Notes under the pieces: generated by a model
Told to the model about the DNA's origin: nothing
Seen by the model: only the letters and a program-made list of their open reading frames with translations
Database searches by the model: none
Position numbers and translations under genes: made by a program
In this document: in pieces, positions 1-15,425 of the stretch
Position numbering within the stretch: the first letter of the stretch is position 1
Layout: each line of letters opens with the position of its first letter
NCBI RefSeq assembly: GCF_900112255.1
Contig: NZ_FOLE01000001.1
Span: 434,001 to 498,000 of the forward strand
Direction of reading: 5' to 3'
DNA from: Flexibacter flexilis DSM 6793
GTDB taxonomy: Bacteria > Bacteroidota > Bacteroidia > Cytophagales > Flexibacteraceae
DNA length: 64,000 nt

Positions 1-72
1 CATGCCCAACAACAAATGGAGCATGACGATACAGAAAATAATTACTTCTATGGACATGACGAGTTAGTTTAA
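1..72 (+). CDS. C-terminal end of an unidentified protein (partial)
   Basis: The first 23 codons are open in frame 1 and end in TAA at 70-72. The visible tail is polar and acidic and ends NNYFYGHDELV. The start lies outside the window, so no family can be assigned. It is supported mainly by the hairpin that follows directly and separates it from the convergent regulator gene. The short length leaves open that the reading frame is fortuitous. Confidence 0.4.
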   Translation, partial: HAQQQMEHDDTENNYFYGHDELV

Positions 73-89
73 GATTGTGCGTAAAAACA

Positions 90-120
90 TAGCGGCAAAG
101 CTATTGTAGCCTTGCCGCTA
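90..120 (-). terminator. Hairpin terminator between convergent genes
   Basis: Thirteen-base arms (TAGCGGCAAAGCT and its near-perfect inverse, with one wobble) enclose a 5-base loop. Read on the minus strand the hairpin is followed by TGTTTTTAC, giving the U-run expected of an intrinsic terminator for the Crp/Fnr gene. It may also end the plus-strand gene at the window edge. Confidence 0.6.
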
Positions 121-213
121 AAGAAATGACATAAATCAGCGATTCTTTGAATCAAAAGGAAGTGCTATGGTGAAGGCACAAACTACGGAAAAGATATTCG
201 CAAGAATTTGGTT

Positions 214-786
214 TTATAGCCGAATATTTTTTCTAATTCTGCTTAACGACGACTGCGTAATACCCAAATATGAGGCCAAATATGAAAGAGGAATACGATT
301 CGCAAGCTTAGGAAACTTCTCGAAAAACGAAAGATAACGTTCTTTCGCATCTTCCACCATCATCGGACTTATTTTATTCACTTTTTCGGCCAACGCTTTC
401 GCTGTAATTTTCGCAATAATATTATCCCATTCAATAATAGTCATTGACAGTTCGGTCATGGCGTCTTTTGAAAATGAGATATATTTACAGTCTATAATCG
501 CTTGAATATATTCGGTAGCAGGCGTATTTTGGTTATAGTTATTGATATCGGCAATAAAGTTATTTTCATCAAAAAAATATTTGGTTACTTCATCGCCTTT
601 GTTGTTAAAATAACAAATTCTCATAATTCCGTCTGTCAGAAAAATGATTTCACGTGGGATTTTTCCTGCTTCAAGAACATAGTCGTCTTTCTTCGTTTCC
701 TTGTATATCGCTTTGGCTTTGATTAAGTCAATTTGCTGATGATTCAAGTTGCTAAATTGTAACAAATAATTGATGAGTGCTTCCAT
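214..786 (-). CDS. Crp/Fnr family transcriptional regulator
   Basis: A 190-residue regulator. Residues about 20-120 fit the cyclic-nucleotide-binding-like beta-roll fold, and residues about 165-186 form a compact helix-turn-helix (IPLSYLASYLGITQSSLSR). This short type without Cys ligands is common in Bacteroidetes, where many copies respond to unknown signals. Its start lies 4 bases after the stop of the SDR gene upstream on the same strand, so the two are probably co-transcribed and the regulator may control the SDR. Two more genes of this type occur in the window, at 28968 and 43592. Family assignment is firm; the effector and targets are unknown. Confidence 0.88.
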   Translation of the reverse strand: MEALINYLLQFSNLNHQQIDLIKAKAIYKETKKDDYVLEAGKIPREIIFLTDGIMRICYFNNKGDEVTKYFFDENNFIADINNYNQNTPATEYIQAIIDCKYISFSKDAMTELSMTIIEWDNIIAKITAKALAEKVNKISPMMVEDAKERYLSFFEKFPKLANRIPLSYLASYLGITQSSLSRIRKNIRL

Positions 787-790
787 ATTT

Positions 791-1597
791 TTACTTCATT
801 TGACTTAATATCATTTTATCAAACATTTTATCTGATAAAATTCTTCTCATAAACAATATTGGTCTGACCATATCACCGCCAACATATCTTGCTTTAGGTT
901 GCTTCGCCTCAATGCCTTTTTTGATAAGTTTTGCAATTACAATTGGTTCGACGGCGTTCATGGACGAATATGTTTTGGCTATGCTTTTTGCTAAGTTTTG
1001 GTAGGGCGTATTTCCAGAAACACGCATTAAATCAGCAGCTCCTATTTCAATCATTTCTGATTTTGTGGCACCAGGTTCAATTACGATTACATCAATACCA
1101 AATTGTTTTACTTCTACACGAAGGCAGTCGCTCAGGCCTTCAATAGCATGTTTACTTGCATGATACCAACTTCCCATTGGAAAATATACTTTACCACCAA
1201 CAGAGGATAGATTTACTATTTTCCCAAATTTATTTTCACGCATTTGGGGCAGTACTAATTGAATAAGACGAGCCGTACCAAACAAATTAATATCTATCAG
1301 GTTTCTAGCCTCCTGCATTGGCACATCTTCCAAAGCACCATAAGAACCTAAACCTGCACTGTTGACCAAAATATCAATACAACCCACCTCGCTGATGATT
1401 TGGCTGACGCAAGCCTTCAGACTTTCCTCATTGGTAACATCTAAACTCATCGGTTTAATACCATAAGGTATCAAATCTTGCATTTTTTCTAATCTGCGTG
1501 CTGCTCCATAAACATAGTAGCCATTTTGCGCCAAATAGATTGCCGTAGCCTTTCCTATGCCTGCCGAAGCTCCTGTTACTAACGCTGTCTTTTTCAT
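791..1597 (-). CDS. SDR family oxidoreductase
   Basis: A classical short-chain dehydrogenase/reductase of 268 residues when started at the Met that directly precedes KKTALVTGASAGIG; an upstream in-frame Met would add 16 residues with no Rossmann similarity. The nucleotide-binding TGASAGIG lies at 8-15, NSAG at 79-82, the catalytic Ser at 131-132, and YHASK gives Tyr145 and Lys149. The cofactor is NAD(P)H; the substrate is unknown. Such oxidoreductases often act on small carbonyl compounds. It is followed after 4 bases by a Crp/Fnr regulator, which suggests a two-gene unit. Confidence 0.9.
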   Translation of the reverse strand: MKKTALVTGASAGIGKATAIYLAQNGYYVYGAARRLEKMQDLIPYGIKPMSLDVTNEESLKACVSQIISEVGCIDILVNSAGLGSYGALEDVPMQEARNLIDINLFGTARLIQLVLPQMRENKFGKIVNLSSVGGKVYFPMGSWYHASKHAIEGLSDCLRVEVKQFGIDVIVIEPGATKSEMIEIGAADLMRVSGNTPYQNLAKSIAKTYSSMNAVEPIVIAKLIKKGIEAKQPKARYVGGDMVRPILFMRRILSDKMFDKMILSQMK

Positions 1598-1783
1598 TTT
1601 TTTATAATTTAGAAGTGAAATAATAAGACAAAGGTGACGCAACAAAAACTATAATCTTTTGCCATTTGGCAAAAAGTGGCGCAAAGCACGTACAATCAAT
1701 TACATACTGAATACAGCGTACTATTTTCCATCAAAAACAGGAACAGATATTCATAAAATAATAGCTGTCCCTGTTCATTTTTT

Positions 1784-2695
1784 TCAAGAAAAACGCTCTT
1801 CCGTCAGTTCTTTATTGACAGCCATACCTGTTGCGGTACCCGTCGCTACGGCATTGGCAACTGTCCGCATACGAGTAGTATTGTCGCCACAGGCAAACAC
1901 ACTTTTTATACTTGTTTTCTGAAAAGCATCAACTTTGAGATAACCATCTTCGGTCAGTTCACAGCCCAACTGCATAGGAATTGGGCAATGTTGCTCAAAA
2001 GGAAGTCGCGTATAAAGTGCATTTATTTTTTGTTCTGCACCGTCCTTAAATACAATTGCTTGCAGTTGCCCATTGGTGTGCGCTAATGCTACAATTTCCG
2101 TTTCCACAACTCGGATGCGATGGCTGGCCAGTTGTGCGGCTTGCTGGGTGCTTAGCGTTGATTTTCCGTTGGTGAACAATGTCAAATCATTAGTCCAATT
2201 AGCAATGAGTTTGGAAAATTCAAAGCCAGATTCGCCATTGCCCAAAATTCCAGTGACAGCGTTTCGTACTTCATATCCATGGCAATACGGACAATGTAAC
2301 ACCGAAATTCCCCAACATTCTGCCAAGCCTTTGATATTGGGCATCATATCTCGGATGCCAGTGGCGAAAATCAATTTTGTAGCCGAAAACACTTCGCCCG
2401 ATGAAATTTGTATTTCAAAACCCTTGTTAGTTTTACGGCCAGCAGTAGCCAATCCGTCCCAAAAAGCAATGGTGTTGTAGGCGGCTACTTGTTGTCTTAC
2501 AATATTTGCTATCTGTTTGGGTGTTTGCCCGTCTTGGGTCAAGAAATTATGCGAATGTGGCGTTTGTCGGTTGCAAGGCTGGCCGCTGTCAATAATGAGC
2601 ACCGTTTTTAACGCTCTACCCAATGCCATTGCGGCAGCCAGTCCCGAATAACTCCCCCCAACAATGATTGTATCAAAATGTTTATTGCCGTTCAT
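1784..2695 (-). CDS. NAD(P)/FAD-dependent oxidoreductase, thioredoxin reductase-like
   Basis: A flavoprotein of 303 residues starting at MNGNKHFDTIIVGG; an upstream Met would add 13 unsupported residues. The FAD-binding GGSYSG lies at 13-18, a second nucleotide-binding GNGESG follows the redox motif, and ACGDN near the C terminus is the usual FAD-binding close. CPYC at 135-138 is the redox-active pair typical of thioredoxin reductases. The protein lacks a fused thioredoxin domain. Family members with this N-terminal GGSYSG form are often annotated as TrxB-like rather than true thioredoxin reductases, so the electron acceptor is uncertain. The intervals to both neighbours are about 100-190 bases, so it is probably transcribed alone. 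Confidence 0.85.
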   Translation of the reverse strand: MNGNKHFDTIIVGGSYSGLAAAMALGRALKTVLIIDSGQPCNRQTPHSHNFLTQDGQTPKQIANIVRQQVAAYNTIAFWDGLATAGRKTNKGFEIQISSGEVFSATKLIFATGIRDMMPNIKGLAECWGISVLHCPYCHGYEVRNAVTGILGNGESGFEFSKLIANWTNDLTLFTNGKSTLSTQQAAQLASHRIRVVETEIVALAHTNGQLQAIVFKDGAEQKINALYTRLPFEQHCPIPMQLGCELTEDGYLKVDAFQKTSIKSVFACGDNTTRMRTVANAVATGTATGMAVNKELTEERFS

Positions 2696-2795
2696 AAAGT
2701 TATTTTTTGAGTGCTGAATTGATTTGAAAGGCAAAGCAAAAAATGCAATGGCAATTCCGCTTTGCTTTATAAATATTCATCTTGATAACGATCTG

Positions 2796-3059
2796 CTATT
2801 TTTCTGTTCGTGTCCCATCATCACTTGTATTTTGTGTTGGTGAAGTTGAGAGTCCCAATTGCCCCATCACCCAGTCCACCAACGGAACGCCAACCAATAC
2901 CGTCCAAGGCACCAGTACCAAGGTGAGTATCAAGGTTCTGACATACAGCGGAAACGCAGATAACATTTCTCCAAACAAATAGTGAAATAAGGTAATAGAC
3001 GGATAAATAACTACCCATATTTTTAGCGATGCCATTACTCTTGCTTTTAGCTTCATCAT
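2796..3059 (-). CDS. Small membrane protein with two predicted helices
   Basis: An 87-residue protein with two hydrophobic stretches, about residues 13-38 (KIWVVIYPSITLFHYLFG onward) and about 40-66 (YVRTLILTLVLVPWTVLVG), and a polar C-terminal tail. A soluble family is not recognisable; it resembles small two-helix proteins that accompany oxidoreductase genes in Bacteroidetes. It starts 25 bases after the SDR-like gene upstream, so they probably share a transcript from the element near 3721. The function is unknown. Confidence 0.6.
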   Translation of the reverse strand: MMKLKARVMASLKIWVVIYPSITLFHYLFGEMLSAFPLYVRTLILTLVLVPWTVLVGVPLVDWVMGQLGLSTSPTQNTSDDGTRTEK

Positions 3060-3084
3060 GTTTTTGTGGAGTTTAAAACTTAAA

Positions 3085-3681
3085 TTAATGAAGTGTTATA
3101 ATTTGCCCCGTGTTGGCACCAAATACACTTTTGCGAAAGCCATACTCAAGTTGTTTCATCGTCGTGGGCATTTCGCCAGGGAAATACGGAAAATATTGTG
3201 GAGAATTTTCGATAACCGTCGGACTTACAGCATTAATGCGAACTCCATTTTCTAACTCAATGGCGGCGGCTCTTACAAATGCTTCTACTGCTCCGTTGGC
3301 GGCGGATGCGTTGGCAAAATTGCGTTGCGGTTCGTGCGTTAAAGCCCCCGTAATCAAGGTAAAAGAGCCTTTGGGTTTGATATAATGCTGCCCGATAAGC
3401 ACCAAATTAATTTGTCCCATCAACTTGCCTTCAAGGCCTTTGCGGAATGTTTCGCTCGACAAACTTTTCCATGCCCCCACATACGTTGGGCCAGCAGTAC
3501 AAATCAGCGCATCAAACGCCCCCACTTGTTGAAACAGGTTTTCGATAGACTCTGGGTCGGTAATATCTACCTGAATATCACCCGAATGCGCACTTGCTTT
3601 AATGATTTCGTGTTCTTGCTCCCAAGCGTTTACTAAGTAAGTTCCCATAGTGCCCGACGCACCTACAATAATGATTTTCAT
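3085..3681 (-). CDS. Short-chain dehydrogenase-like NAD(P)-binding protein lacking the usual catalytic Tyr/Lys
   Basis: A 198-residue Rossmann-fold protein. The N terminus KIIIVGASGTMG is a clear dinucleotide-binding loop, and CTAG and NAVSPT match SDR landmarks. At the place where classical SDRs have YxxxK, the protein has NASAANGAVEAFV, so both catalytic Tyr and Lys are missing, as is known for a short subfamily of about 200 residues. It may still bind NAD(P) or act on substrates by another mechanism. It precedes a small membrane protein gene and follows the divergently controlled AraC regulator on the same strand. Confidence 0.8.
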   Translation of the reverse strand: MKIIIVGASGTMGTYLVNAWEQEHEIIKASAHSGDIQVDITDPESIENLFQQVGAFDALICTAGPTYVGAWKSLSSETFRKGLEGKLMGQINLVLIGQHYIKPKGSFTLITGALTHEPQRNFANASAANGAVEAFVRAAAIELENGVRINAVSPTVIENSPQYFPYFPGEMPTTMKQLEYGFRKSVFGANTGQIITLH

Positions 3682-3714
3682 TTTGCTTAACTTTTATTTT
3701 TTGATAAATTAGAA

Positions 3715-3728
3715 GATATGCAAAAGTA
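3715..3728 (-). promoter_or_regulatory. Candidate Bacteroidetes -7 element for the SDR-like gene
   Basis: On the minus strand the bases read TACTTTTGCATATC, containing a perfect TAnnTTTG. It lies about 40 bases upstream of the SDR-like start codon. No convincing TTTG -33 box is found at the usual 19-base spacing. The same 14 bases occur upstream of the beta-barrel gene at 43531-43544. Confidence 0.45.
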
Positions 3729-3777
3729 TCGGGGCAAGGCGGCTTGCTTGTAAGACAAAAATGAAGTTGGATAGGAC

Positions 3778-4629
3778 TTATTTAAAGTTCTGCCTAAAGG
3801 TTTCGGGGGAATAGCCCGTATGCTTTTTAAAAAAACGAATGAAGTAAGATACGTCTTCGTAACCTAACTCATAGGCAATCTGGTTTACTTGATTTGAGGT
3901 GGCGAGCAGATGCCTTTTGGCTTCCAGAATAATATGTTCATTAATGAGGTCCGAACAGGTTTTATTCAGCGTTTCTTTGGTAATCGAATTGAGTTGGTAG
4001 GCCGTAAGATGCAACATATCAGCATATTGCGTCACTTTCTTTGTGGTCGTAATATGCTGCTGCAACAATTGTAACAACGCTTCTAATCGCTCTTGGGCAT
4101 ATGGATGACTTTGCGTGTGAATGCGGTTTGGTTCTTGGCTCTGCCTTACCAGTTCAATAAAAAGAAGCTCCAAATTCGCTTTGATTGCATCCTGATACCT
4201 TTCTTGCTTGTGGGTATATTCCCGAAAAATACAAGTCAAAAAAGAAAAAATCTTTCTAAACTTCTCAGCATTAAGTGGGCAATAATTCTTATTACTCACT
4301 TTAAGAAAAATCTGGTGGGCTGTTTTTTCGCGAGGCGCATAAAAATCAGTCTTAAACTGCATCAAATAACCCTTGCTAGCGTTTTTTAATGTTAGTTGAT
4401 GCACTTGGCCGGGACGAATAAAAAAAACTGTGTAATTATTGATGGCGTAGGGTATAAAATCAATGATATGTTCGCCCTCGCCCTTTTCCAATGCCAAAAT
4501 CAAAAAGAAGTCGTGTCGGTGAAGTTCCTGCACCAAATCCTTCCCCGAAAGCAGCGAATCCATATCCCGAATAGTAAAACTATCCGAAAAATCAGGTTCT
4601 GCCATTTGTCTTACGGGAATTTTTTCCAT
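3778..4629 (-). CDS. AraC family transcriptional regulator
   Basis: A 283-residue regulator. Residues about 25-130 form an AraC-type cupin sensor (HRHDFFLILALEKGEGEH near 38-55), and residues about 185-283 carry two helix-turn-helix units, ending with the family signature IAYELGYEDVSYFIRFFKKHTGYSP. It is followed on the same strand by the SDR-like gene and small membrane protein, with about 96 bases between that hold a candidate promoter. A natural inference is that it activates these two genes in response to a small ligand, but the ligand is unknown. Confidence 0.9.
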   Translation of the reverse strand: MEKIPVRQMAEPDFSDSFTIRDMDSLLSGKDLVQELHRHDFFLILALEKGEGEHIIDFIPYAINNYTVFFIRPGQVHQLTLKNASKGYLMQFKTDFYAPREKTAHQIFLKVSNKNYCPLNAEKFRKIFSFLTCIFREYTHKQERYQDAIKANLELLFIELVRQSQEPNRIHTQSHPYAQERLEALLQLLQQHITTTKKVTQYADMLHLTAYQLNSITKETLNKTCSDLINEHIILEAKRHLLATSNQVNQIAYELGYEDVSYFIRFFKKHTGYSPETFRQNFK

Positions 4630-4683
4630 CTGCTTTTCTTTTTTGTTACGGGAATGGTCATACTAATGAGATGGGTTAGAAGG

Positions 4684-4705
4684 TGGCCTATGTCTTCACA
4701 GGCCA
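4684..4705 (-). terminator. Hairpin downstream of the YHYH gene
   Basis: Nine-base arms TGGCCTATG and CACAGGCCA (one wobble) enclose TCTT, 15 bases after the YHYH stop codon. No T-run follows on the minus strand, so it may be a transcript-end stabiliser rather than a classical terminator. Confidence 0.3.
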
Positions 4706-4719
4706 TGGTCAGGTAACTT

Positions 4720-6090
4720 CTATTTTTGTACAAAAACCTTCTTGGTGATGCTACTATTGCCTGAAGACATCACCACCAAATATGTACCCGAATACAAGGT
4801 TTGAATATCAAAATAACCAAGCGTTTGGCCTTTGTTCAGTTTCGATTCTTGTATTAATTTTCCTTGCAGGTCATACAATTTGATTGCTAAATCTTGTTTG
4901 TTGAGGCCGCCGATTTGCACCACGATTAGGTCAGAGGCAGGATTGGGGAAAATTTGTATTTCGTTGTCGGTGCTTGGCGCACTAACAGACACTGTACTGT
5001 TGTAAACGGTGGTTGTTTCAGTAATGGACGTAACCTTTGAACCAGATTTCACGCCATAGTATGTCGGCCCGACGAGATACGGATAAACCGAGTTGTAATT
5101 CGTATCTACCGTTGCAAAATACGCATACGTTCCGTTCGGGTATTCGGGTGTAATACAAAACCTACCGTTGTGCGCGTCCAAATAACTTTCGTCTCCCGTA
5201 TGGGCTGCCCATTCGTAATCTTCTCTGAAAGTTCCAAGCGGATATGTGGTGCTCACGGCTGGGCCATCGGCAACGTCAGTGCCATCCGCCCAATGCGTGC
5301 GTGTCGTGATATTTCTTAACTGATAACCCGATTTAATTCTTGTGATTCCGCCTGTACCATTGCTATTTTTATAGCCAAATGCACCATATACGGGGAAGCC
5401 ATCAAACGCAAACCCGATGAGAGGCGAGTGCTCAGAAGCCGAAATCGTATATAACCCATCGCCGTCATACAAATTACAGATAGTAGAGATAACGTTTAAA
5501 TCCATATTAAAGGCACTGGGACTTTGATGATGATGATAGTTTGTGCCCGCAGGATGACCTTTAGAACAGTCAAAACCAGGTTTTTCAAACAATACGGCAT
5601 CGCGCATCCAAGGTTGCGTAACATTCGGCCCACCCGCACAAGGCGGATTGCCCGGCCCTCCACAATACGCATTGGCCGTAGTGTTCCACGCTACTCCATC
5701 TCTAAAATCAAACATCGAAACGCCATTCACAAACACGCCAATCGTTCCGCCAGCGGTGGCAGTAGGCGTGCCTGTATTCTGCACTGGATTGAGGGGAAAT
5801 GCGTAAATGACATTTTGATTTCCCGCTTGATTCGGGTTTCCGTCAAGATAAGGCCCGACGTTATAAGCAGGCATACCCGTAGTCCGAACATATACACTGT
5901 TTGCGGAGTATTCTACTTTCTGACAATTCACCAATATTCCGTGTGAGATTGGCGTAGAATTGCCTGACATATAATAATAACCCGTTGTAGTGGTATTTTG
6001 TAGCCATTCTGTAATAGCAGGATTGGTTTGGGCGATTAGCTCCGAAAAACCAGCCAACATCAGCATTAGTAGTAAAGAAGATTTACGCAT
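4720..6090 (-). CDS. YHYH domain protein with T9SS type A sorting domain
   Basis: A 456-residue secreted protein when started at MRKSSLLLML, which gives a clean signal peptide ending near residue 20 (ELIA/QTNP); an upstream Met would add 18 residues. The central part has the features of the YHYH domain: His-rich TNYHHHQSPSAF at about 184-194 and FAFDGFPVYGAFG. The last 79 residues (IQIFPNPASDL to the end KKVFVQK) form a T9SS C-terminal sorting domain, so the protein is probably exported and anchored at the cell surface. The role of YHYH domains is not established; the His cluster suggests metal binding. It lies 13 bases downstream of the di-heme enzyme gene and so ends a three-gene unit with the MbnP-like gene. 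Confidence 0.85.
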   Translation of the reverse strand: MRKSSLLLMLMLAGFSELIAQTNPAITEWLQNTTTTGYYYMSGNSTPISHGILVNCQKVEYSANSVYVRTTGMPAYNVGPYLDGNPNQAGNQNVIYAFPLNPVQNTGTPTATAGGTIGVFVNGVSMFDFRDGVAWNTTANAYCGGPGNPPCAGGPNVTQPWMRDAVLFEKPGFDCSKGHPAGTNYHHHQSPSAFNMDLNVISTICNLYDGDGLYTISASEHSPLIGFAFDGFPVYGAFGYKNSNGTGGITRIKSGYQLRNITTRTHWADGTDVADGPAVSTTYPLGTFREDYEWAAHTGDESYLDAHNGRFCITPEYPNGTYAYFATVDTNYNSVYPYLVGPTYYGVKSGSKVTSITETTTVYNSTVSVSAPSTDNEIQIFPNPASDLIVVQIGGLNKQDLAIKLYDLQGKLIQESKLNKGQTLGYFDIQTLYSGTYLVVMSSGNSSITKKVFVQK

Positions 6091-6103
6091 AATTAATATT
6101 TGT

Positions 6104-7120
6104 TTATTTGTTGTTTTTAAATTGATGTTTGGGCGCAAAAACAAATTCTTTGTCGTTGAGCGTTAATAAAAAAGCGATTAAATCAACTTTTTCGTTTGAC
6201 GTGAGTGTAATGGATTTTGTTAATTGCGGTGAAAGTGTTGCAGACGTTTCTATTCCCGATGCGTAATGGTTAATAACTTCTTTCAATGTACTAAATCGGC
6301 CATCGTGCATATAAGGATACGTGTAAGACAAATTACGAAGGCTTGGTACTTTAAATTTCCTTTTATCCTTTGGCTTTTGCGTAATTACAAATCTACCAAA
6401 ATCTTTGAGAATAGTATCCAGAGGCAAGCCATTATTTTCAAAATGATAGGTAGAAAATAACGGTTCTGCATGACAATTTGCGCAATTTTTTTGAAATAAA
6501 TAATAACCTTTTTTTTCTTGTTCCGAAAAAATATCTTTCCCTAATTTAACTTTATCATATTTTGAATTGGCAGACACAAGCGTTAATTGAAATTGCGCGA
6601 TTGATTTTAAAATTTTACTGCTTGTTATCAAAGAATCTTGGTATGCCCTGAAAAACAATTTTTTATAATCAGCAGACGCAGACAATTTTTTGATAACTTC
6701 CACAATATCACTTCCCATTTCTTTGGGGTGCGAAATGGGAGCTAAAGCCTGCACGTCCAAATGATTGATTGCCCCGTCCCACATGAAAGAACTTTGCCAA
6801 GCCAAATTAAACAAAGCTGGCGCATTTCTGTTGCCAACTGAATCGAATATTCCGTGACTCAAATCGTGGTCGGTGTGCGCAAAAGCGTTGTAAGGGGAAT
6901 GACAAGAAGCACAAGAAACAGCATTGTTTTTTGAAAGAATGGGGTCATAAAACAAAATTCTACCCAATTCAATTTTATTGCTATCCAAAGGATTTTGGGA
7001 GAAATTGTAAACTGGTTTTGGAAAATAGGCAGGTTGTCCGAACCAATGATGTTGGGGCAACAAAACAAAAGACATTAAAATCAAGCCAATCGCCAAAACG
7101 CAAATTATTGTTTTATTCAT
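6104..7120 (-). CDS. Di-heme cytochrome c peroxidase family protein, MauG/MbnH-like
   Basis: A 338-residue periplasmic enzyme with an N-terminal hydrophobic signal or anchor (residues about 4-22) and two c-type heme motifs, CASCH at 70-74 and CANCH at 213-217. The segment WDGAINHLDVQALAPISHP and the C-terminal PYMHDGRFSTL match di-heme peroxidases. Family members reduce peroxide or, in the MauG/MbnH branch, oxidise residues of partner proteins. Its start codon overlaps the stop of the MbnP-like gene (ATGA), which strongly favours the MbnH role. In that system MbnH converts a Trp of MbnP to kynurenine. The peroxidase alternative cannot be excluded from sequence alone. Confidence 0.88.
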   Translation of the reverse strand: MNKTIICVLAIGLILMSFVLLPQHHWFGQPAYFPKPVYNFSQNPLDSNKIELGRILFYDPILSKNNAVSCASCHSPYNAFAHTDHDLSHGIFDSVGNRNAPALFNLAWQSSFMWDGAINHLDVQALAPISHPKEMGSDIVEVIKKLSASADYKKLFFRAYQDSLITSSKILKSIAQFQLTLVSANSKYDKVKLGKDIFSEQEKKGYYLFQKNCANCHAEPLFSTYHFENNGLPLDTILKDFGRFVITQKPKDKRKFKVPSLRNLSYTYPYMHDGRFSTLKEVINHYASGIETSATLSPQLTKSITLTSNEKVDLIAFLLTLNDKEFVFAPKHQFKNNK

Positions 7121-7791
7121 TCTTGGGTCATTTTAAAAATTTCGGGGAATTGATTGGCAATTTGGACGGATTTTTCGCTCGGCGACATCACTTGATAAAT
7201 TTTAGAAACATCAATTAACGTAAATAATTGATCTATTTGTATGAAAATTTCTGCCGAATTACGTGCATTGCAGTTTAATTCTATTTCGCGCATCGCATAA
7301 AAAGGCTCTAAATATCCGCCAATATGCCAATAAAATTTATGATTTCTGGCAGGGCAATTATCGGCAATTCCTTCTAATTTAAAATTGATATAGCCACTTT
7401 GCCAAGTCCAATACATTCCATGAATTGGGTCTAAATTTCCATCCAAAACGCCCGCTACATTCGTGAGACTGTCAATGCCCAACTTAAATTTTATTTTATT
7501 AAAATCAAATAATTTACTTTCAATAATTTCTTGAGAAATGGTTTCGAACGCATCAATCAAATAGGCTTTTTTGCTTGAGCTACCGACCAAAGAATCATTT
7601 TTAAAATACTGCAAATCAGTGATATAAAACTTTAAATTTGTAATCGTTAAAGAGTCTTTTCCAATGCAATACGTTTTATGAAGAACTAATTTATCTGTTT
7701 TAAATTTGGGGATTATTTTCAATTTCGTAACGTCTTGAGCATTAGCCAAAAAGACAATTAACAAACCTAAAGACGAAAAGAAAAACCTCAT
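7117..7791 (-). CDS. MbnP-like secreted copper-site protein
   Basis: A 224-residue protein starting at MRFFFSSLGLLIVFLANA, a signal peptide cut near residue 18. The body has the hallmarks of the MbnP family: a beta-rich start with LTITNLKFYITDLQYF (about 48-63), MYWTWQSGY with Trp128 and Trp130, and HKFYWHIGGYLEPF with His151 and His156. In characterised MbnP a Trp is oxidised to kynurenine by its partner MbnH and the protein binds copper; here Trp128 or Trp130 is the likely equivalent (inference). It is the first gene of a unit with the di-heme enzyme, sharing 4 bases, and the YHYH gene. No methanobactin genes are seen nearby. Confidence 0.8.
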   Translation of the reverse strand: MRFFFSSLGLLIVFLANAQDVTKLKIIPKFKTDKLVLHKTYCIGKDSLTITNLKFYITDLQYFKNDSLVGSSSKKAYLIDAFETISQEIIESKLFDFNKIKFKLGIDSLTNVAGVLDGNLDPIHGMYWTWQSGYINFKLEGIADNCPARNHKFYWHIGGYLEPFYAMREIELNCNARNSAEIFIQIDQLFTLIDVSKIYQVMSPSEKSVQIANQFPEIFKMTQE

Positions 7792-7945
7792 TTTGATGGT
7801 ATTTTGTAGCAATTTTTATGGTGATAAACAAATTTGATTGCCTTTGTTCCTACCGCTTAAGACATTATCCTCACAAAATAAGCAACAGAACAGAGTCTTA
7901 CAACTATTTTCAAATAAAACACAAGAATATCTCTTGCTATAAACC

Positions 7946-7988
7946 AAAACGGGACACGCTAAGTAATATTTAGCGCGTCCCGTTTTTT
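7946..7988 (-). terminator. Terminator of the alcohol dehydrogenase gene
   Basis: Seventeen-base arms with a single wobble (core CGGGACACGCTAA) around a 7-base loop, 18 bases after the dehydrogenase stop codon on the minus strand. Both flanks are A/T runs, so it could work in either direction. Confidence 0.7.
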
Positions 7989-8005
7989 ATAATCTATCAC
8001 TAATT

Positions 8006-9061
8006 TTAAGCCTTCAGCGAATCCATGTCTATCACGAAGCGATATTTCACATCGCCTTTTTCCAAACGCTCAAAAGCTGTGTTTACATCCTGAATATTAA
8101 TAATTTCGCTCTCCGCCACAATGTTGTGTTTATAGCAGAAATCCAACATTTCTTGCGTTTCGGCAATGCCGCCAATGTTCGAACCTGCAAAACTTCTTCT
8201 GCCCATCACCACATTAAACGCATGAATTTCGAGCGGCTCAGGCGGCAAACCCACCAACACTACGGTTCCGTCGTGGCGCAACAGATTCAAATAAGTATTC
8301 ACGTCGTGTTTGGCGGATACCGTGTCTATGATGAAATGTAATTTGCGGTTGTATTTGGCCATTGCCTCCGCATCCGACGACAACACCGCCTCATCAGCAC
8401 CCAAACGTTTGGCATCTTCCACTTTGGCGGGCGAAGTCGTGAAAACCACCACTTCCGCGCCCATCGCTTTCGCGATTTTGATGGCCACGTGTCCCAAACC
8501 ACCGATGCCCAACACACCTACTTTTTTGCCTGCGCTTGCGCCCCAGTGTTTCAGTGGCGAATACACCGTAATACCCGCACAAAGCAACGGTGCTGCCGCT
8601 GCCAAATCTTTAAACGGTGGCATTTTGAGCACATATCTTTCATTACACACATATTTTTTGGAAAAACCGCCAAACGTATGACCGCCCGAAATTTTGTCGG
8701 GGCTATTGAAAGAATACGTTACACCTTCGTCGCAAAACTGCTCAAGGCCGTCGTGACAGTGGTCGCAATGGTCGCAACTGTCCACGATACAACCGACCGC
8801 AGCCAAATCGCCTACTTTGAAATTTTTCACGTGGTTGCCGACAGCCGTTACACGACCTACAATCTCGTGGCCGGGAACGATTGGCGCGAAAAATCCGCCA
8901 AAATCGCCTTTCACTTGGTGCAAATCAGAGTGACAAATGCCACAATACAAAACCTCAAATTCTACATCGTGCGCCTGCACCGCGCGGCGACTAATCATAA
9001 TTTCGTGCAACGGCTCTGTGGTGGCCGTAGTGCCATACGCTTTTACTTGTTGTGTTTCCAT
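8006..9061 (-). CDS. Zinc-dependent NAD(P) alcohol dehydrogenase (cinnamyl alcohol dehydrogenase family)
   Basis: A 351-residue medium-chain dehydrogenase. Cys40 in LYCGICHSDLHQ and His65-Glu66 in VPGHEIVGRV are catalytic zinc ligands; the structural zinc site is Cys96, Cys99, Cys102 and Cys110. The cofactor loop is GIGGLGHVAI. The pattern fits the YahK/CAD group of broad NADPH-dependent aldehyde reductases, so reduction of aldehydes to alcohols is the likely direction. It is probably a single-gene unit: a strong terminator follows and about 290 bases without a recognisable gene precede it up to the cupin gene. Confidence 0.92.
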   Translation of the reverse strand: METQQVKAYGTTATTEPLHEIMISRRAVQAHDVEFEVLYCGICHSDLHQVKGDFGGFFAPIVPGHEIVGRVTAVGNHVKNFKVGDLAAVGCIVDSCDHCDHCHDGLEQFCDEGVTYSFNSPDKISGGHTFGGFSKKYVCNERYVLKMPPFKDLAAAAPLLCAGITVYSPLKHWGASAGKKVGVLGIGGLGHVAIKIAKAMGAEVVVFTTSPAKVEDAKRLGADEAVLSSDAEAMAKYNRKLHFIIDTVSAKHDVNTYLNLLRHDGTVVLVGLPPEPLEIHAFNVVMGRRSFAGSNIGGIAETQEMLDFCYKHNIVAESEIINIQDVNTAFERLEKGDVKYRFVIDMDSLKA

Positions 9062-9348
9062 TTTTTCTATAAAAATCTATTAGTTAAATAGTTAATAACT
9101 ATCACTTAGCATTTTATCACCTTAAAATATTCGAAATTTCGCGCCTATGGCGTTGGCATTTCAGCGAACAATTTTGTGCGGCAAAGCATTCAAACCTGAC
9201 GGATTAAAGACTATAATCCCAAAAGCCTTTAGGCTTGGTATCTTGGTAGTAATCGCCTAATTGATGAATTACGCAAGCACCGTAGGTGTGAAATCTTCTT
9301 TTTCAGCTCATGCTAAATGGCTTAAAAAGTTAGGTTGAGTAATAAAAA

Positions 9349-10599
9349 TTATTTGGCGGGCAAAACTTCGTTCAGGCAATTGATGGCGTTGAGCGTACGC
9401 GGATAACCCACATACGGCAACAGTTGCGTGAGCAGATTAATAATCGTTTGTCGGTCGTTACCCACATTCGCATTGCCCTGAATGTGTCCTTTGATTTGGC
9501 CTTCTGCACCGCCCAACGCCACTAAAAAGGCAAGTGTTACCAGTTCGCGCGTTGGAATATCCAAGCCGCTGCGCGTAACATAGTCGCCGAAACAGTTAGC
9601 CGACAAATACTGCTGAATATGTAGCAAATCTTTAGGCGAATTTTTATACATATCGTCTATGCGACTACCAAAGATTTGTTTTTGCAAAGCCAACCCTTTT
9701 TCCTGTCGGTTTTCGGGCGTAGTGGTAGCATGGCTTTCCAGCGGTAAGGCAATATTTCTTTCTTTGAAAATGTCGTTGGTGGCGGCGATAAAATCTATCA
9801 CTTTCGCAACGCCCACATAAGGCACGGCCTGATACACCACTTCTTTAATTTCCGTTGGTCGAACACCTACATTCAGCGCAGCGTTCACAAACATTCTATA
9901 TTCTGTAAGAGCCTGACTGCCAATCGTAGAAGCCATAATCAGCAAAGTACGACGCTTCACGTCCGTTGTATCGTGGCTGATTACTTCATCAAATGCAAAA
10001 TTGTCGAACACCGCCACCAAATCGGGGTCTGTTTGTTGTACTTTTGAAATATAATCTGGCCACAATTGGCGATGATTAGCCAAAGCCTTTGCGTTCGGTT
10101 GCGTGCCGTTATTGCTTTGCGCCTGATTGTAGTCTGTGTCGCTTACGGGTTCGAACCATTCGGTTTTGTCTTTGTCCACGTCCGTAATCATGGCAATATG
10201 TCGCATACTGTTTTGGTGAGAAGCTCCGTGCCAATGCACTACATTTTTAGGGATTTTCACCACATCGCCTTCCCGAATTACGCGCATAGGCTGGCCTTTT
10301 TCCTGATAGTACCCGATTCCTTCAATCACAAAAAGAAGCTGGCCGCTTCGATGACTATGCCAATTGGTGCGGGCTTGCCGCTCGAAGGTTACCGTTGCGA
10401 TGTTGGCATTATAACCTTCGTCGGGCGTTACGTTCATGTTTACCCACACCGTACCCGTAAACCATTCTTTCGGGGCGGCATTTCCTTTGTTGATAAAAGA
10501 TGCCATTTGATTTTTTTTGTTTATTTGTTTGGTCTGGGCAAAAGCAACACCACCGTACAGCATTGTTACCAATCCCCAAAATGCTACTATTTGTTTCAT
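9349..10599 (-). CDS. Secreted cupin / carboxymuconolactone decarboxylase fusion protein
   Basis: A 416-residue protein with a signal peptide (residues 1-21, ending AFA/QTK). A cupin domain occupies about 55-150, with the metal-binding set TNWHSHRSGQLLFVIEG and a later VHWHG. Two carboxymuconolactone-decarboxylase-like (AhpD-like) helical repeats follow at about 190-285 and 305-400. CMD domains of the AhpD type use a CxxC pair; here no CxxC is visible, so peroxidase chemistry of that kind is unlikely. The combination is known in bacterial quinone- or lactone-related proteins but the substrate is not defined. It lies upstream of aldehyde/alcohol redox genes and follows the Rossmann remnant on the same strand. 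Confidence 0.85.
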   Translation of the reverse strand: MKQIVAFWGLVTMLYGGVAFAQTKQINKKNQMASFINKGNAAPKEWFTGTVWVNMNVTPDEGYNANIATVTFERQARTNWHSHRSGQLLFVIEGIGYYQEKGQPMRVIREGDVVKIPKNVVHWHGASHQNSMRHIAMITDVDKDKTEWFEPVSDTDYNQAQSNNGTQPNAKALANHRQLWPDYISKVQQTDPDLVAVFDNFAFDEVISHDTTDVKRRTLLIMASTIGSQALTEYRMFVNAALNVGVRPTEIKEVVYQAVPYVGVAKVIDFIAATNDIFKERNIALPLESHATTTPENRQEKGLALQKQIFGSRIDDMYKNSPKDLLHIQQYLSANCFGDYVTRSGLDIPTRELVTLAFLVALGGAEGQIKGHIQGNANVGNDRQTIINLLTQLLPYVGYPRTLNAINCLNEVLPAK

Positions 10600-10623
10600 C
10601 GTGTTTATTTAACTAACAGAAAA

Positions 10624-10737
10624 TCAAGGCTTACTAATGCCCAGATTTTGATTAAGATGCAAAGCTGGATTCTGCACGATAGTGGCCACGAAAGCAGCAA
10701 TACTTCCACTTGCCCCGATAATGAGCACTTTTGTCAT
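10624..10737 (-). pseudogene. N-terminal remnant of an NAD(P)-binding Rossmann-fold (SDR/NmrA-like) gene
   Basis: A 37-codon frame begins MTKVLIIGASGSIAAF, a textbook dinucleotide-binding start (GASGSIA), and runs into a stop soon after QNPALHLNQNLGISKP. Intact relatives are about 200-300 residues long, so only the first strand, loop and helix remain. No continuation is found before the cupin gene. It starts 12 bases after the aldo/keto reductase stop, as an operon member would. The most likely reading is an internal deletion of a reductase gene; a genuine short peptide is less likely. Confidence 0.6.
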
Positions 10738-10749
10738 GTAAACTTTGGC

Positions 10750-12039
<1,290 letters not shown>

Positions 12040-12858
12040 ATGTCTGTTCACCGTTCAGAACCCAAGCGCATCACCACGCATACACTTTTGGAGATGAAGC
12101 AAAAGGGCGAAAAAATAAGTATGCTCACAGCCTACGATTATTCGATGGCTCGAATTTTTGACAGTGCAGGAATAGACGTGTTGCTCGTCGGCGACTCGGC
12201 TTCTAACGTAATGGCTGGCCACGAAACTACTTTGCCCATTACACTCGACCAAATGATTTATCATGCCTCCTCGGTGGTCAGGGCTGTAAAGCGTTGCTTG
12301 GTGGTGGTGGACTTACCGTTTGGTTCGTATCAGGGCAACTCTTCGGAGGCTCTGCGTTCGGCTATCCGCATCATGAAAGAATCTGGCGGCCATGCTATTA
12401 AAGTAGAAGGCGGCAGTGAAATAAAAGAATCGGTGTTGCGTGTGTTGAGTGCTGGTGTGCCTGTGATGGGACATTTGGGACTTACGCCGCAGTCTATCTA
12501 CAAATTCGGAACTTATACGGTACGCGCCAAAGAAGAAGCCGAAGCCCAAAAGTTGATAGAAGATGCCAAAATGCTCGAAGAATGTGGCTGTTTTGCGTTG
12601 GTTTTAGAAAAAATCCCTTCTAAGTTGGCCAAACGCGTAGCCGAAGAAATTAATATTCCTGTCATTGGAATTGGTGCAGGGCCGCACGTGGATGGTCAAG
12701 TGCTTGTTTCGCATGATTTGCTGGGTATTACCAACGAATTTAAGCCGCGTTTCTTGCGTAAATATGCTGACTTACACAGTATTATGATCGAAGCTGTAGC
12801 CAATTATATAACGGACGTGAAAGAAAATACATTCCCGAACGAAAAAGAATGTTATTAA
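12040..12858 (+). CDS. panB: 3-methyl-2-oxobutanoate hydroxymethyltransferase
   Basis: A 272-residue TIM-barrel enzyme that transfers a hydroxymethyl group from methylenetetrahydrofolate to 2-oxoisovalerate, the first committed step of pantothenate (coenzyme A) synthesis. Family signatures are present in order: [58 protein letters not shown] and [15 protein letters not shown]. The length is typical. The other pantothenate genes are not in the window. The start fits the conserved N-terminal [13 protein letters not shown] region. Confidence 0.97.
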
Positions 12859-13006
12859 TTATTGAGCGTAAAAATCTGTTTTTGAAGTAGAAAATTTAGC
12901 TTCAAAGAATTTTTACCTTATCTTGCGTAGGCCAAACTTCTGCAAATTTTGTACAGATTTGAGCCTGTTTTTTTATTTACTCACTTAAAAACAAATCCTT
13001 ACGACG

Positions 13007-13117
13007 ATGGCCAAAAGCACAGATATGCGCAAAGAAAAGAAAAAAGAGCCAACAAAGTCTCTAAAAGAAAAGCGCGACGCGAAAAAACAAAAAAAGAATG
13101 ACCGTTCTAGCGACTAA
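13007..13117 (+). CDS. Tiny Lys-rich basic protein
   Basis: A 36-codon frame starting MAKSTDMRKEKKKEPTKS and ending NDRSSD. It contains 12 Lys and 3 Arg, with no hydrophobic core, so it should be disordered and could bind nucleic acid. Short proteins with a MAK..MRKEKKK start are, to my recollection, frequent in Bacteroidetes, which together with the terminator 35 bases downstream supports a real gene. The function is unknown. A poly-A-rich chance frame is the alternative. Confidence 0.55.
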   Translation: MAKSTDMRKEKKKEPTKSLKEKRDAKKQKKNDRSSD

Positions 13118-13152
13118 TTTTTTTGTTTCAATTTTTTCTTGAAAGCCAATAA

Positions 13153-13194
13153 AAAGGCTTAGTAATGAATAAACTTACTCATTACTAAGCCTTT
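13153..13194. terminator. Bidirectional terminator
   Basis: Perfect 16-base arms (AAAGGCTTAGTAATGA and its inverse) around a 10-base loop, with A/T runs on both sides. It sits between the Lys-rich gene and the convergent glycosidase gene and can serve both. Confidence 0.75.
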
Positions 13195-13214
13195 AGCTTT
13201 TATAAATCTATTGC

Positions 13215-15035
13215 TTATTTCGTTTTGGGAGCTTTGCTCACTTGCCAAATGGCTAAGGCTGTTTCGGCACTGCACCAACTCAGCGGCGAAGCTGGGCTAC
13301 AATCCGAGCCATCAGGATAAATACGTTCGGGCATGAGGCCGTACACATTGCTATTGTCTATCATCCAACCCAAAAGCTGTTTGGCATCTGCCCATTCTTG
13401 GTGCAGTACGCGGTATTGCACCAGTGCCGCCGACGTAAAGAAAAATGCCGCGTGTCCGTAAGTGGCTAAGCCATGTTCGGGCGTGTCGAAATACTGCAAA
13501 CCTCCACCCAAAATCATAGCGTTAGTTTTGTACCATTCGGCTGTTTTTTGCATGGTTTCGTTGTCGGGGTAGCCCCACAAAATCCCGAAAAGCGATGAAG
13601 TATCGTACAAATACGTTGGCGTGTTGCCTTCGATAGATGTACCGTCGTCGGCCTTGCGGTCTATCGTGCGCAAATCCATGTAAGTACCTGTTTTGGGGTC
13701 AATCATGCGATTGATGTTGGCCGCCATCAGGTCGGCAGCTTTTTCGTAGCTGTTGGCTTTTTCGGTATTGTTCCATTTGCGGGCAATGTGCGAAGCCGTG
13801 CGCAATGCCGCTGCGCAAGTTAGGTTGGTAGAAGGCAAATAACCTGTCCATTCCACGATGCCACCTTCGTACAACAAGCCGTTTTTATCTAATTTATTTA
13901 CCAGAAAATCAGCCGTTTGATAGAAAAATTCGGGTGTGGTAAGCCACTGGCCTGTTTGCTCGTGGTATTCGTTGATTAGCCAAATGAAATAGCCGTTTGC
14001 GTCCCATTCGGGTTCGTCGTAGCGTGCGCCGTCGCCTGCATTTACGCCTTTGCCGAAAGCGTTGTAACGGGCATACCATTCGCCAACCGATTTTTTATCT
14101 ACAAAAGTTTTTTGCCAATATTCAATTACTTGTTTGGCTTCTTCGCGGTGGCCTGTGAGCAACATCACGCGGGCGGTTTTCATGGCATCGCGCGGGTAGA
14201 GTTGGGGCATTCCTTGCGTGCGGAACTGGCCCGTAATGTCGGCAGGGATTTGACCGCCTAAGTTGGCCGAACGCGCCGCGATAAGATTGCGCTGGAAATA
14301 GGTGCGCAATTCTTGTTGGGTTTTGTCGGGCTGCTTGCCAGAGGCCAACCATTTGTCCCAATAAGCCGCCGCCGTAGCCATCGGCGTTTTGTCGGCTTTC
14401 AATACCGCAATGTTTTGCTCTAAGGCTTTGAGCGAATGCGCCGCCGTAATGGCAATGGTTAATTTTTTTGTTCCTTTAAAAGAAATGCTCGAATCGGCTA
14501 CGCTGATTTGGTCGGTTGCTTTGCCTGAAAGAATAACAAAACCCACATACACGCCATTGCTCCAACGGCCATACGCCCAATTTTTGTTGGCTTTCAATTC
14601 GGTAAGTTCCGTGATGCGGTTGGTGGAAATGTATTTGCGCAAACCCACCAAATACCCTACGGATTGTGCCGCTTGCGTTTCCACAATAATGGCATTTTTG
14701 GGGTGACTTGTCAGCGAAATAGATTCTTTATCTGTCTGAGAATGAATAACATAAGGTGCGGAAAGTGTCGTTTCTTTCAGTTCGGTGATGGGTTGCCATT
14801 GCCCTGCTGCCGTGCGCGTAAGCAACTGCGTAGAACGCAAATAATCGGTGGTATAATCCTCGAAATAAAGATGTTGAATCCCCATTTGGTTGGTTTGCTT
14901 CACGATGCGGGCATCATCGGAATACGCAAAATTAAGCGTGCCATTGCCCAGCACCGAAAAGCCTTTCCATTTGCCCGCAGAGGCAGGAAGTGCCACCAAC
15001 CAAGCGGCAGCCAGTAGTAAAATAGTTTTCTTCAT
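13215..15035 (-). CDS. Secreted glycoside hydrolase, GH15/six-hairpin type
   Basis: A 606-residue protein with a signal peptide (MKKTILLLAAAWLVALPASA). An N-terminal beta-rich domain precedes an alpha/alpha-barrel region with LYPRDAMKTARVML, DEPEWDANGYFIWL, VEWTGYLPSTNLTC and a C-terminal SPLSWCSAETALA, the pattern of GH15 glucoamylase-like enzymes. Substrates in the family include starch oligosaccharides and trehalose. The Glu-rich positions needed for catalysis cannot be fixed without an alignment. It is a single gene here with a terminator after it; the GH13 amylase gene lies 9 kb away. Confidence 0.75.
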   Translation of the reverse strand: MKKTILLLAAAWLVALPASAGKWKGFSVLGNGTLNFAYSDDARIVKQTNQMGIQHLYFEDYTTDYLRSTQLLTRTAAGQWQPITELKETTLSAPYVIHSQTDKESISLTSHPKNAIIVETQAAQSVGYLVGLRKYISTNRITELTELKANKNWAYGRWSNGVYVGFVILSGKATDQISVADSSISFKGTKKLTIAITAAHSLKALEQNIAVLKADKTPMATAAAYWDKWLASGKQPDKTQQELRTYFQRNLIAARSANLGGQIPADITGQFRTQGMPQLYPRDAMKTARVMLLTGHREEAKQVIEYWQKTFVDKKSVGEWYARYNAFGKGVNAGDGARYDEPEWDANGYFIWLINEYHEQTGQWLTTPEFFYQTADFLVNKLDKNGLLYEGGIVEWTGYLPSTNLTCAAALRTASHIARKWNNTEKANSYEKAADLMAANINRMIDPKTGTYMDLRTIDRKADDGTSIEGNTPTYLYDTSSLFGILWGYPDNETMQKTAEWYKTNAMILGGGLQYFDTPEHGLATYGHAAFFFTSAALVQYRVLHQEWADAKQLLGWMIDNSNVYGLMPERIYPDGSDCSPASPLSWCSAETALAIWQVSKAPKTK

Positions 15036-15398: not shown

Positions 15399-15425
15399 TA
15401 TTAAGAAATAATTTCTGGATTTCGA

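What the first reader, a model, noticed from the sequence alone, without database searches (positions are those of the whole stretch)
4720..7791. MbnP-like, MbnH-like and YHYH genes form one tight cluster with no methanobactin genes
Seen: the MbnP-like gene overlaps the di-heme enzyme gene by 4 bases (ATGA), and the YHYH/T9SS gene follows after 13 bases. MbnP-like has a MYWTWQ motif (Trp128 and Trp130) and the enzyme has two CxxCH hemes. Known: MbnH (a MauG homologue) converts a Trp of MbnP to kynurenine and the partner then binds copper. Inference: here the same pair works with a surface-exposed YHYH protein as a third component, possibly delivering or storing copper at the outside of the cell. 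I have not seen a description of a YHYH member in this system.
Basis: partly seen in the sequence, partly recalled or inferred. Interest (0 to 1): 0.66.

Follow-up and report, generated by a model that had tools for sequence, protein, structure and literature searches.

The report
Copper-protein pair with surface YHYH partner
Three adjacent genes encode a probable copper-binding protein, the haem enzyme that probably activates it, and an exported surface protein of unknown function; the same trio recurs across many Bacteroidota, so the third gene is probably a real partner and can now be tested.

Summary
On the minus strand lie an MbnP-family gene (7791-7117), a di-haem MbnH/MauG-like gene (7120-6104, ATGA overlap) and a YHYH gene with a type IX sorting tail (6090-4720, 13-nt gap). 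The MbnP model has one clear solved match, MbnP itself (7L6G, Z 17.0; next 5.3). Met126, Trp128, Trp130 and His156 align with conserved positions of solved MbnP.

P and H lie upstream of Y, same strand, in 60 of the 80 closest YHYH loci. In 395 phylum genomes, 8 of 24 with full-length YHYH have MbnP within 5 kb (0.09 expected). YHYH-linked MbnPs are nearly one clade (72 of the 76 rows on a 99%-supported branch). About half of these loci have an ECF sigma gene upstream, often with a CnrX/CpxP-like protein; unlinked MbnPs seldom do. Some carry a multicopper oxidase or sulfatase gene on the same strand.

So this is a conserved module: a new variant of the known MbnP/MbnH pair. Copper handling by YHYH is inference; a surface zinc hydrolase, as predicted in print, is nearly as likely. 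NCBIfam equivalog cut-offs are not met. Two key papers could not be read, so earlier mention of YHYH is not excluded.

The parts
7117..7791 (-). MbnP-family protein, 224 aa, N-terminal hydrophobic signal-like segment
   Evidence: PF20243 E 3e-34; AlphaFold model pLDDT 94.7; only 7L6G chains match below E 0.001, Z 17.0 over 206 residues, next entry 5.3
7402..7416 (-). M126-Y-W128-T-W130: candidate copper Met, candidate kynurenine Trp128, second Trp of WxW
   Evidence: M126, W128, W130 invariant in 58 of 58 aligned MbnPs; aligned with GMAWNW of 7L6G
7324..7326 (-). His156 (HIGG), candidate copper ligand
   Evidence: invariant in 58 of 58, aligned with a His of 7L6G
6104..7120 (-). MbnH/MauG-like di-haem enzyme, 338 aa
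   Evidence: CCP_MauG; best NCBIfam model TIGR04039 226.8 bits, below its 362.85 cut-off; solved relatives include 6E1C and MauG
6899..6913 (-). first haem site CASCH (70-74)
   Evidence: sequence; Cys, Cys, His invariant in 20 of 20
6470..6484 (-). second haem site CANCH (213-217)
   Evidence: sequence; Cys, Cys, His invariant in 20 of 20
6263..6265 (-). Tyr286, where the peroxidase 3O5C has Met and 6E1C has Tyr
   Evidence: alignments; invariant in 20 of 20
4720..6090 (-). YHYH protein with T9SS sorting tail, 456 aa
   Evidence: PF14240 and PF18962
5095..5805 (-). YHYH domain (residues 96-332)
   Evidence: PF14240 profile 2-186 of 193
5527..5571 (-). putative metal site D174, H179, Y185-H186-x-H188
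   Evidence: invariant in 64 of 64; D..H..YHxH pattern in 115 of 115 YHYH proteins
4729..4953 (-). type IX secretion sorting domain (residues 380-454)
   Evidence: PF18962, TIGR04183; SprA in the genome
7946..7986 (-). strong hairpin between the upstream dehydrogenase gene and MbnP
   Evidence: inverted repeat of 20 nt; fold z -7.1; not listed by the terminator scan
4684..4705 (-). hairpin after the YHYH stop codon
   Evidence: z -3.8; not listed by the terminator scan

Best explanation
This is a three-gene copper-handling operon of a Bacteroidota subfamily of the MbnP/MbnH pair. P and H work in the periplasm. MbnH, a MauG-like di-haem enzyme, oxidises Trp128 of MbnP to kynurenine, which lets MbnP hold one Cu(I) through Met126 and His156. 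The YHYH protein passes through the periplasm and is exported to the cell surface by the type IX system. It is a metalloprotein with an Asp/His site (D174, H179, H186, H188), and the proposal is that MbnP loads it with copper, as it may load T9SS-exported multicopper oxidases in some relatives, or that the two pass copper between surface and periplasm. In about half of the related loci an ECF sigma gene lies upstream, often with a small membrane protein and a CnrX/CpxP-like protein, which suggests extracytoplasmic, metal-responsive control. Shown: gene families, fold, residue conservation, conserved synteny. Inferred: cellular location, kynurenine formation, copper binding, the partner role of YHYH, metal-responsive control. 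My shares: conserved functional module 0.9; kynurenine formed 0.75; MbnP binds copper 0.7; YHYH itself receives or handles copper 0.3.
For: MbnP fold: only 7L6G chains below E 0.001, Z 17.0, 206 residues, rmsd 3.1. M126/W128/W130/H156 invariant in 58 of 58 and aligned with 7L6G. MbnH Tyr286 invariant in 20 of 20. P-H-Y order on one strand in 60 of the 80 closest YHYH loci; P-H gap at most 50 nt in 56 of 60, H-Y gap at most 150 nt in 46 of 60. Phylum sample: 8 of 24 genomes with full-length YHYH have MbnP within 5 kb, the window's own genome among the 8; 0.09 expected. MbnP tree: the label 'YHYH within 5 kb' needs 7 changes against 45.8 when shuffled; one 99% branch holds 72 linked and 4 unlinked rows. 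ECF sigma upstream of 30 of 62 linked against 2 of 43 unlinked MbnPs, CnrX-like 27 of 62 against 1 of 43. Multicopper oxidase motif within 3 kb, same strand, in 9 of 102 YHYH loci; the one scored against NCBIfam is nearest CueO. MbnPH-like genes are reported in copper-related operons of other bacteria (PMC9426467, passages).
Against: No experiment. NCBIfam equivalog cut-offs for both proteins are missed. YHYH occurs without MbnP: 11 of 24 full-length-YHYH genomes have no MbnP, and 8 distant YHYHs lack it nearby; on the YHYH tree the label 'MbnP near' is only moderately clustered (22 changes against 30.1 shuffled). YHYH domains occur in viral proteins, which argues against a copper-only role. 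No sigma, CnrX-like or multicopper oxidase gene was hit in the first 16 kb of the window, and of its other neighbours only three were named by Pfam, none a copper protein; the only CnrX-like hit in the genome is weak (E 6e-6) and far off on the same contig. Only 9 of 29 CnrX-like proteins hit PF13801, and apart from the start Met no column with a typical metal ligand is invariant among them, His63 coming nearest. P-Y distance correlation (0.42) is weaker than P-H (0.82).
Confidence: 0.45

Rival explanations
1. YHYH is a surface metal-dependent (zinc) hydrolase or carbohydrate-binding protein. It shares an operon with MbnP/MbnH because all are expressed under the same envelope or metal stress, without metal passing between them.
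For: A published prediction: three conserved histidines and an aspartate forming a Zn site, tail-associated hydrolase (PMC7824862, passages); [quoted passage not shown] Structural matches to phage YHYH proteins. Sulfatases (by motif) lie on the same strand within 3 kb in 9 of 102 loci. P-Y correlation is weaker than P-H.
Against: Does not by itself explain why MbnPs linked to YHYH form nearly one clade or why a multicopper oxidase recurs beside YHYH.
Confidence: 0.33
2. YHYH is a second substrate of the di-haem enzyme, which oxidises a residue of it before export.
For: 6 of 80 loci show MbnH but no MbnP in the stretch with YHYH; two of them (L087, L143) have several kb of sequence upstream. 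Trp161 of YHYH is nearly invariant.
Against: Four of the six lie within 2.5 kb of a contig end. The H-Y distance correlation (0.51) is well below P-H (0.82). YHYH was also found with neither gene in 12 of 80 loci, several of them at contig ends.
Confidence: 0.1
3. The MbnP/MbnH pair of this subfamily handles another metal or senses peroxide, and copper is an over-extension from methanotrophs.
For: Equivalog cut-offs missed; identity to 7L6G is only 11-13%; the ECF/CnrX layout of relatives resembles a nickel/cobalt sensor system (CnrYXH and its metals recalled, not from a call).
Against: The ligand positions and WxW are fully conserved and the fold is that of MbnP, a Cu(I) protein (recalled from the abstract of Manesis et al. 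2021).
Confidence: 0.1
4. Chance neighbourhood of unrelated genes.
For: None found.
Against: 60 of 80 loci in the same order; 8 co-locations against 0.09 expected.
Confidence: 0.01

Closest known systems
MbnP/MbnH of Methylosinus trichosporium OB3b (7L6G; that 6E1C is MbnH is recalled)
   Same: MbnP fold, M-x-W-x-W and His positions, adjacent di-haem MauG-like enzyme with Tyr at the axial position
   Different: 11-13% identity, below NCBIfam equivalog cut-offs, no methanobactin genes detected, third YHYH gene, sigma/CnrX-like genes upstream in many relatives
CorA/CorB and MopE/SACCP of methanotrophs (PMC3912023, PMC3621798; passages)
   Same: surface or periplasmic copper protein with Trp-derived kynurenine, next to a di-haem peroxidase-like protein
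   Different: the CorA copper site has two His, a water and kynurenine, no Met; [quoted passage not shown]
MauG
   Same: di-haem enzyme of the same superfamily that oxidises Trp residues of a partner protein
   Different: partner is methylamine dehydrogenase and the product a quinone cofactor; TIGR03791 score 189.9, below its cut-off of 443.85
YHYH domain proteins (PF14240), including phage baseplate and other viral proteins
   Same: same domain and Asp/His motif
   Different: T9SS tail and frequent linkage to MbnP/MbnH
CnrYXH-type ECF sigma/anti-sigma/metal sensor systems (recalled)
   Same: gene layout upstream of many relatives: ECF sigma, small protein, Metal_resist/LTXXQ-like protein
   Different: not seen at the window's own locus; only 9 of 29 reach PF13801; metal unknown

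Membership tests
MbnP (PF20243) | Pfam profile over gathering score | tested here: met
   119 bits against 27
MbnP (PF20243) | fold of solved MbnP | tested here: met
   7L6G only match below E 0.001, Z 17.0
MbnP (PF20243) | WxW with Met and His copper positions (Cu ligands recalled from the abstract of Manesis et al. 2021) | tested here: met
   M126, W128, W130, H156 align with 7L6G; 58 of 58 conserve them
MbnP equivalog TIGR04052 | curated NCBIfam cut-off | tested here: not met
   26.3 against 140 bits; two close relatives also miss it, 35.8 and 35.0
MbnP/MbnH pair | kynurenine formed by MbnH and Cu(I) bound | not testable with these tools
   needs protein chemistry
MbnH (di-haem, MauG-like) | two CxxCH and Tyr instead of the peroxidase Met | tested here: met
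MbnH TIGR04039 | curated NCBIfam cut-off | tested here: not met
   226.8 against 362.85, though the best-scoring NCBIfam model for this protein
MauG (TIGR03791) | curated NCBIfam cut-off | tested here: not met
   189.9 against 443.85
YHYH (PF14240) | nearly full-length profile and D..H..YHxH residues | tested here: met
   180.8 against 25 bits, positions 2-186 of 193; residues
T9SS cargo | C-terminal sorting domain and T9SS in the genome | tested here: met
   PF18962 57.2 against 27; SprA 2518 bits; 59 of 64 aligned YHYHs match PF18962
methanobactin operon | MbnB and MbnC genes | tested here: not met
   no MbnB match; no MbnC match, but no control rang in that search
CnrX-type sensor locus | ECF sigma, anti-sigma and CnrX beside the operon in the window | tested here: not met
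   none hit in window 1-16000 with profiles made from relatives; in relatives sigma 30 and CnrX-like 27 of 62 linked MbnPs

The most novel reading that the evidence does not exclude
A kynurenine-containing Cu(I) protein serves as a periplasmic copper-loading chaperone for type IX-secreted surface enzymes (YHYH and, in relatives, CueO-like multicopper oxidases), which would make YHYH a new class of surface cuproprotein. This would be a dedicated metallation step for T9SS cargo, switched on in many relatives by a metal-sensing ECF sigma system.
Probability: 0.22. Interest if true: 0.78.

Novelty: new variant of a known kind. Interest (0 to 1): 0.55.

Why it matters
For YHYH (PF14240) I found only predicted functions, and the MbnP/MbnH pair occurs far beyond methanobactin producers (PMC3621798) with little known about partners. 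A recurrent linkage of the two gives each a concrete test: does Kyn-MbnP pass copper to a surface protein? It would also address how exported T9SS metalloenzymes get their metal.

Tried and rejected
Chance clustering: rejected. A TonB receptor as a regular neighbour: two 780-aa proteins near the cluster look like TonB receptors (L081 by Pfam; L081 and L094 by NCBIfam matches below cut-off), but two others of the same length (L084, L141) show only a T9SS type B sorting domain, L141 just below its cut-off, so no general claim is made. Sigma gene in the window genome: the second MbnP/MbnH pair (L067) has an ECF gene upstream but no CnrX-like gene, and its MbnP lies outside the YHYH-linked clade. 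My first sulfatase and oxidase profiles also caught T9SS tails (the window's YHYH hit the sulfatase profile), so counts rest on catalytic motifs instead with Pfam checks of some; L148 is a sulfatase by Pfam that the motif scan did not list. No MopE or CorA chain appears among the listed structural matches of the MbnP model (capped lists, so not excluded). Plasmid collection: one distant YHYH (Deinococcus) and no MbnP. Promoter and terminator scans: no excess over shuffles, and the two hairpins were not listed. Whether the trio occurs outside the window's phylum was not tested; I had no centre genome for it. Gene calls in scripts were crude (longest open frames): 4 of 40 fetched MbnP stretches (L162, L163, L187, L192) and two fragments under 150 aa (L097, L139) dropped out of the MbnP set, so absence from a locus is a lower bound of what is there. 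In print: searches of the open library listed no paper on YHYH with MbnP/MbnH (the lists were cut: 30 of 56, 20 of 38, 20 of 85, 5 of 327,046), but the two key papers (Kenney 2019, Manesis 2021; DOIs recalled, that of Manesis also printed) are not held, and their neighbourhood analyses may list it.
Full report
Observation. Pfam names them MbnP, CCP_MauG and YHYH plus Por_Secre_tail, all well over their cut-offs. A strong hairpin upstream (7946-7986) and a weaker one downstream (4684-4705) bracket them, though the terminator scan listed neither; one transcription unit is likely. MbnB and MbnC of methanobactin operons were not found in the genome; in the MbnC search no control rang.

Identity of the pair. 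NCBIfam's strict models are missed: TIGR04052 26.3 of 140 bits, TIGR04039 226.8 of 362.85. The fold is clear all the same: the AlphaFold model (pLDDT 94.7) matches only the six 7L6G chains (M. trichosporium MbnP) below E 0.001, with Z 17.0 over 206 residues, rmsd 3.1 and 13% identity, against 5.3 for the next entry. In a profile match to 7L6G (E 0.008) the window's Met126, Trp128, Trp130 and His156 fall on GMAWNW and a His. These four are invariant in 58 of 58 aligned proteins. In a wider set of 137 MbnPs, M.W.W is found in 128. With six rows dropped (the four unlinked rows inside the YHYH-linked clade and the two linked rows outside it), all four residues are present in 72 of 72 YHYH-linked MbnPs and in 88, 98, 92 and 97% of 59 unlinked ones. 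That a Met, a His and the first Trp of WxW (as kynurenine) make the copper site of MbnP is recalled from the abstract of Manesis et al. 2021, which I could not read. The enzyme has two CxxCH and Tyr286, where the peroxidase 3O5C has Met and 6E1C has Tyr; Tyr286 is invariant in 20 of 20. An MbnH lies within 1.5 kb of 133 of 137 MbnPs.

Is YHYH a real third member? In the window's family (11 genomes) YHYH is in 8 and MbnP in 11. Fetched stretches show P-H-Y together in G000, G001, G003, G004 and G005, and in G009 with YHYH cut by the contig end; in G006 the YHYH stretch holds no MbnP; G002 has only partial YHYH matches. In 395 genomes drawn from the phylum, 39 have a YHYH match and 97 an MbnP match, 96 over the cut-off. 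Of the 24 with full-length YHYH (E below 1e-40; table made by hand), 13 have MbnP anywhere and 8 have it within 5 kb, against 0.09 expected. The window's own genome is one of the 8; without it the count is 7 of 23. In 60 of 80, P and H lie upstream of Y on the same strand; P-H gaps are at most 50 nt in 56 of 60 and H-Y gaps at most 150 nt in 46 of 60. Of the other 20, nine have under 1.2 kb of contig before YHYH and cannot be judged, L101 and L130 are rearranged, and nine show no P in the stretch seen (L087, L102, L108, L120, L124, L131, L143, L146, L157; three of these, L102, L124 and L146, start within 2.5 kb of the contig end). Gene calling in my scripts was crude and misses some genes.

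Trees. Among 137 MbnPs (quick IQ-TREE, SH-aLRT only, midpoint root) the label 'YHYH within 5 kb' needs 7 changes against 45.8 in shuffles; a 99% branch holds 72 linked and 4 unlinked rows. The four exceptions: L024 (the same gene as in L077, where a YHYH fragment touches the contig end), L071 and L073 (YHYH on another contig of the same genome) and L033 (no YHYH match in its genome, but a CnrX-like gene just upstream). Two linked rows outside (L043_4411, L152_11401) are second MbnPs in loci that also hold a clade member. Caveat: 61 of 74 linked rows were recruited through YHYH, and 38 of 63 unlinked ones come from 40 stretches that I chose among MbnP hits without YHYH nearby; the label guided the choice, the MbnP sequence did not. 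In the YHYH tree (115 rows, some very long branches), 107 fall in the clade that holds the window's protein: 80 with MbnP within 5 kb, 6 with MbnH only, 7 at contig ends, 14 without; 8 distant YHYHs lack MbnP nearby. On this tree the label 'MbnP near' needs 22 changes against 30.1 shuffled, so YHYHs without adjacent MbnP are scattered rather than one group. Protein distances across 69 trios correlate (P-H 0.82, H-Y 0.51, P-Y 0.42), without a species control. The enzymes of linked loci share His82, Asp84, His85 and His89 (all 100%, against 31, 18, 55 and 55% in unlinked ones; 131 enzymes less the same dropped rows), a candidate subfamily signature.

Neighbours in relatives. Upstream of YHYH-linked MbnPs with at least 1.8 kb of sequence, an ECF sigma gene is present in 30 of 62 and a roughly 155-aa membrane-anchored protein in 27 of 62, against 2 of 43 and 1 of 43 for unlinked MbnPs (Fisher p about 8e-7 each). 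Rows with less sequence, 12 linked and 20 unlinked, were left out. The profiles were made mostly from the linked loci, which favours finding such genes there. The single unlinked MbnP with both is L071, itself in the clade. A small protein is present in 20 of 62; the two that I scanned have no Pfam match. The 155-aa protein matches Metal_resist PF13801 in 9 of 29 and LTXXQ in 4 of 29 at E 0.01. The layout resembles the CnrYXH metal-sensor system (recalled). The closest relative of the window's cluster (L079, Crocinitomicaceae; nearest row for both MbnP and YHYH) has all three genes upstream; the window does not. A multicopper oxidase lies within 3 kb in 9 and a sulfatase in 9 of 102 YHYH loci by motif, all 18 on the same strand. 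Pfam confirmed the oxidases of L050, L146 and L151 and the sulfatases of L094, L107, L117, L146, L148 and L152, all with T9SS tails, though that of L117 is below Pfam's cut-off. The oxidase of L151 scores best on CueO, 375 bits, below its cut-off of 525.

What YHYH may be. Asp174, His179, Tyr185, His186 and His188 are invariant in 64 of 64, and the pattern D..H..YHxH is in 115 of 115. The model (pLDDT 87.8) finds viral YHYH proteins; against solved structures little but its tail was compared. One paper predicts a zinc site and a hydrolase (PMC7824862, passages); another lists the domain with carbohydrate-binding and host-recognition domains in phage structural proteins (PMC7029224, one passage). 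So the linkage supports a metal role, and the MbnP and oxidase neighbours point to copper, but zinc is not excluded.

Literature seen. PMC3621798 (passages): MbnP and MbnH are a pair far beyond methanobactin producers, relevance unclear in 2013. PMC3912023 (passages): CorA copper site with kynurenine and two His. PMC9426467 (passages): MbnPH-like genes in operons with copper-related genes. PMC7406223 (passages): only 6% of Bacteroidetes ECFs are associated with class I anti-sigma (ASDI) genes. Kenney 2019 and Manesis 2021 were not held.

Verdict. It is a divergent subfamily of the MbnP/MbnH kind with a T9SS-tailed YHYH partner and, in many relatives, a probable metal-responsive regulatory set upstream. 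The copper chemistry is likely for MbnP and open for YHYH.

Noticed in passing
G000:C3:37931-38557 (L067) and G000:C1:34690-35259 (L068): Two further MbnP/MbnH pairs in the same genome, without YHYH nearby and outside the YHYH-linked MbnP clade.
   Followed up: partly
L144:5107-5838, L142, L097:1318-2064: A 242-248-aa gene sits between MbnH and YHYH in three Flavobacteriales or Cryomorphaceae loci; that of L144 is bacteriorhodopsin-like by Pfam, and the start of L097's reads alike.
   Followed up: partly
L198:7794-9870: On a Deinococcus plasmid a distant YHYH gene is followed after 4 bases by a HupE/UreJ family gene, a possible second metal link of YHYH.
   Followed up: no
L094, L102, L107, L117, L146, L148, L152: Sulfatase genes in the same orientation as the YHYH gene (L102 by motif alone, the others by Pfam, with T9SS tails); why sulfatases join this locus is unexplained.
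   Followed up: partly
window 9349-10599, minus strand: A 416-aa protein combining a cupin domain with carboxymuconolactone decarboxylase domains.
   Followed up: no
L087 and L143: MbnH directly before YHYH with no MbnP detected in several kb upstream, so the enzyme and YHYH may occur without an adjacent MbnP.
   Followed up: no
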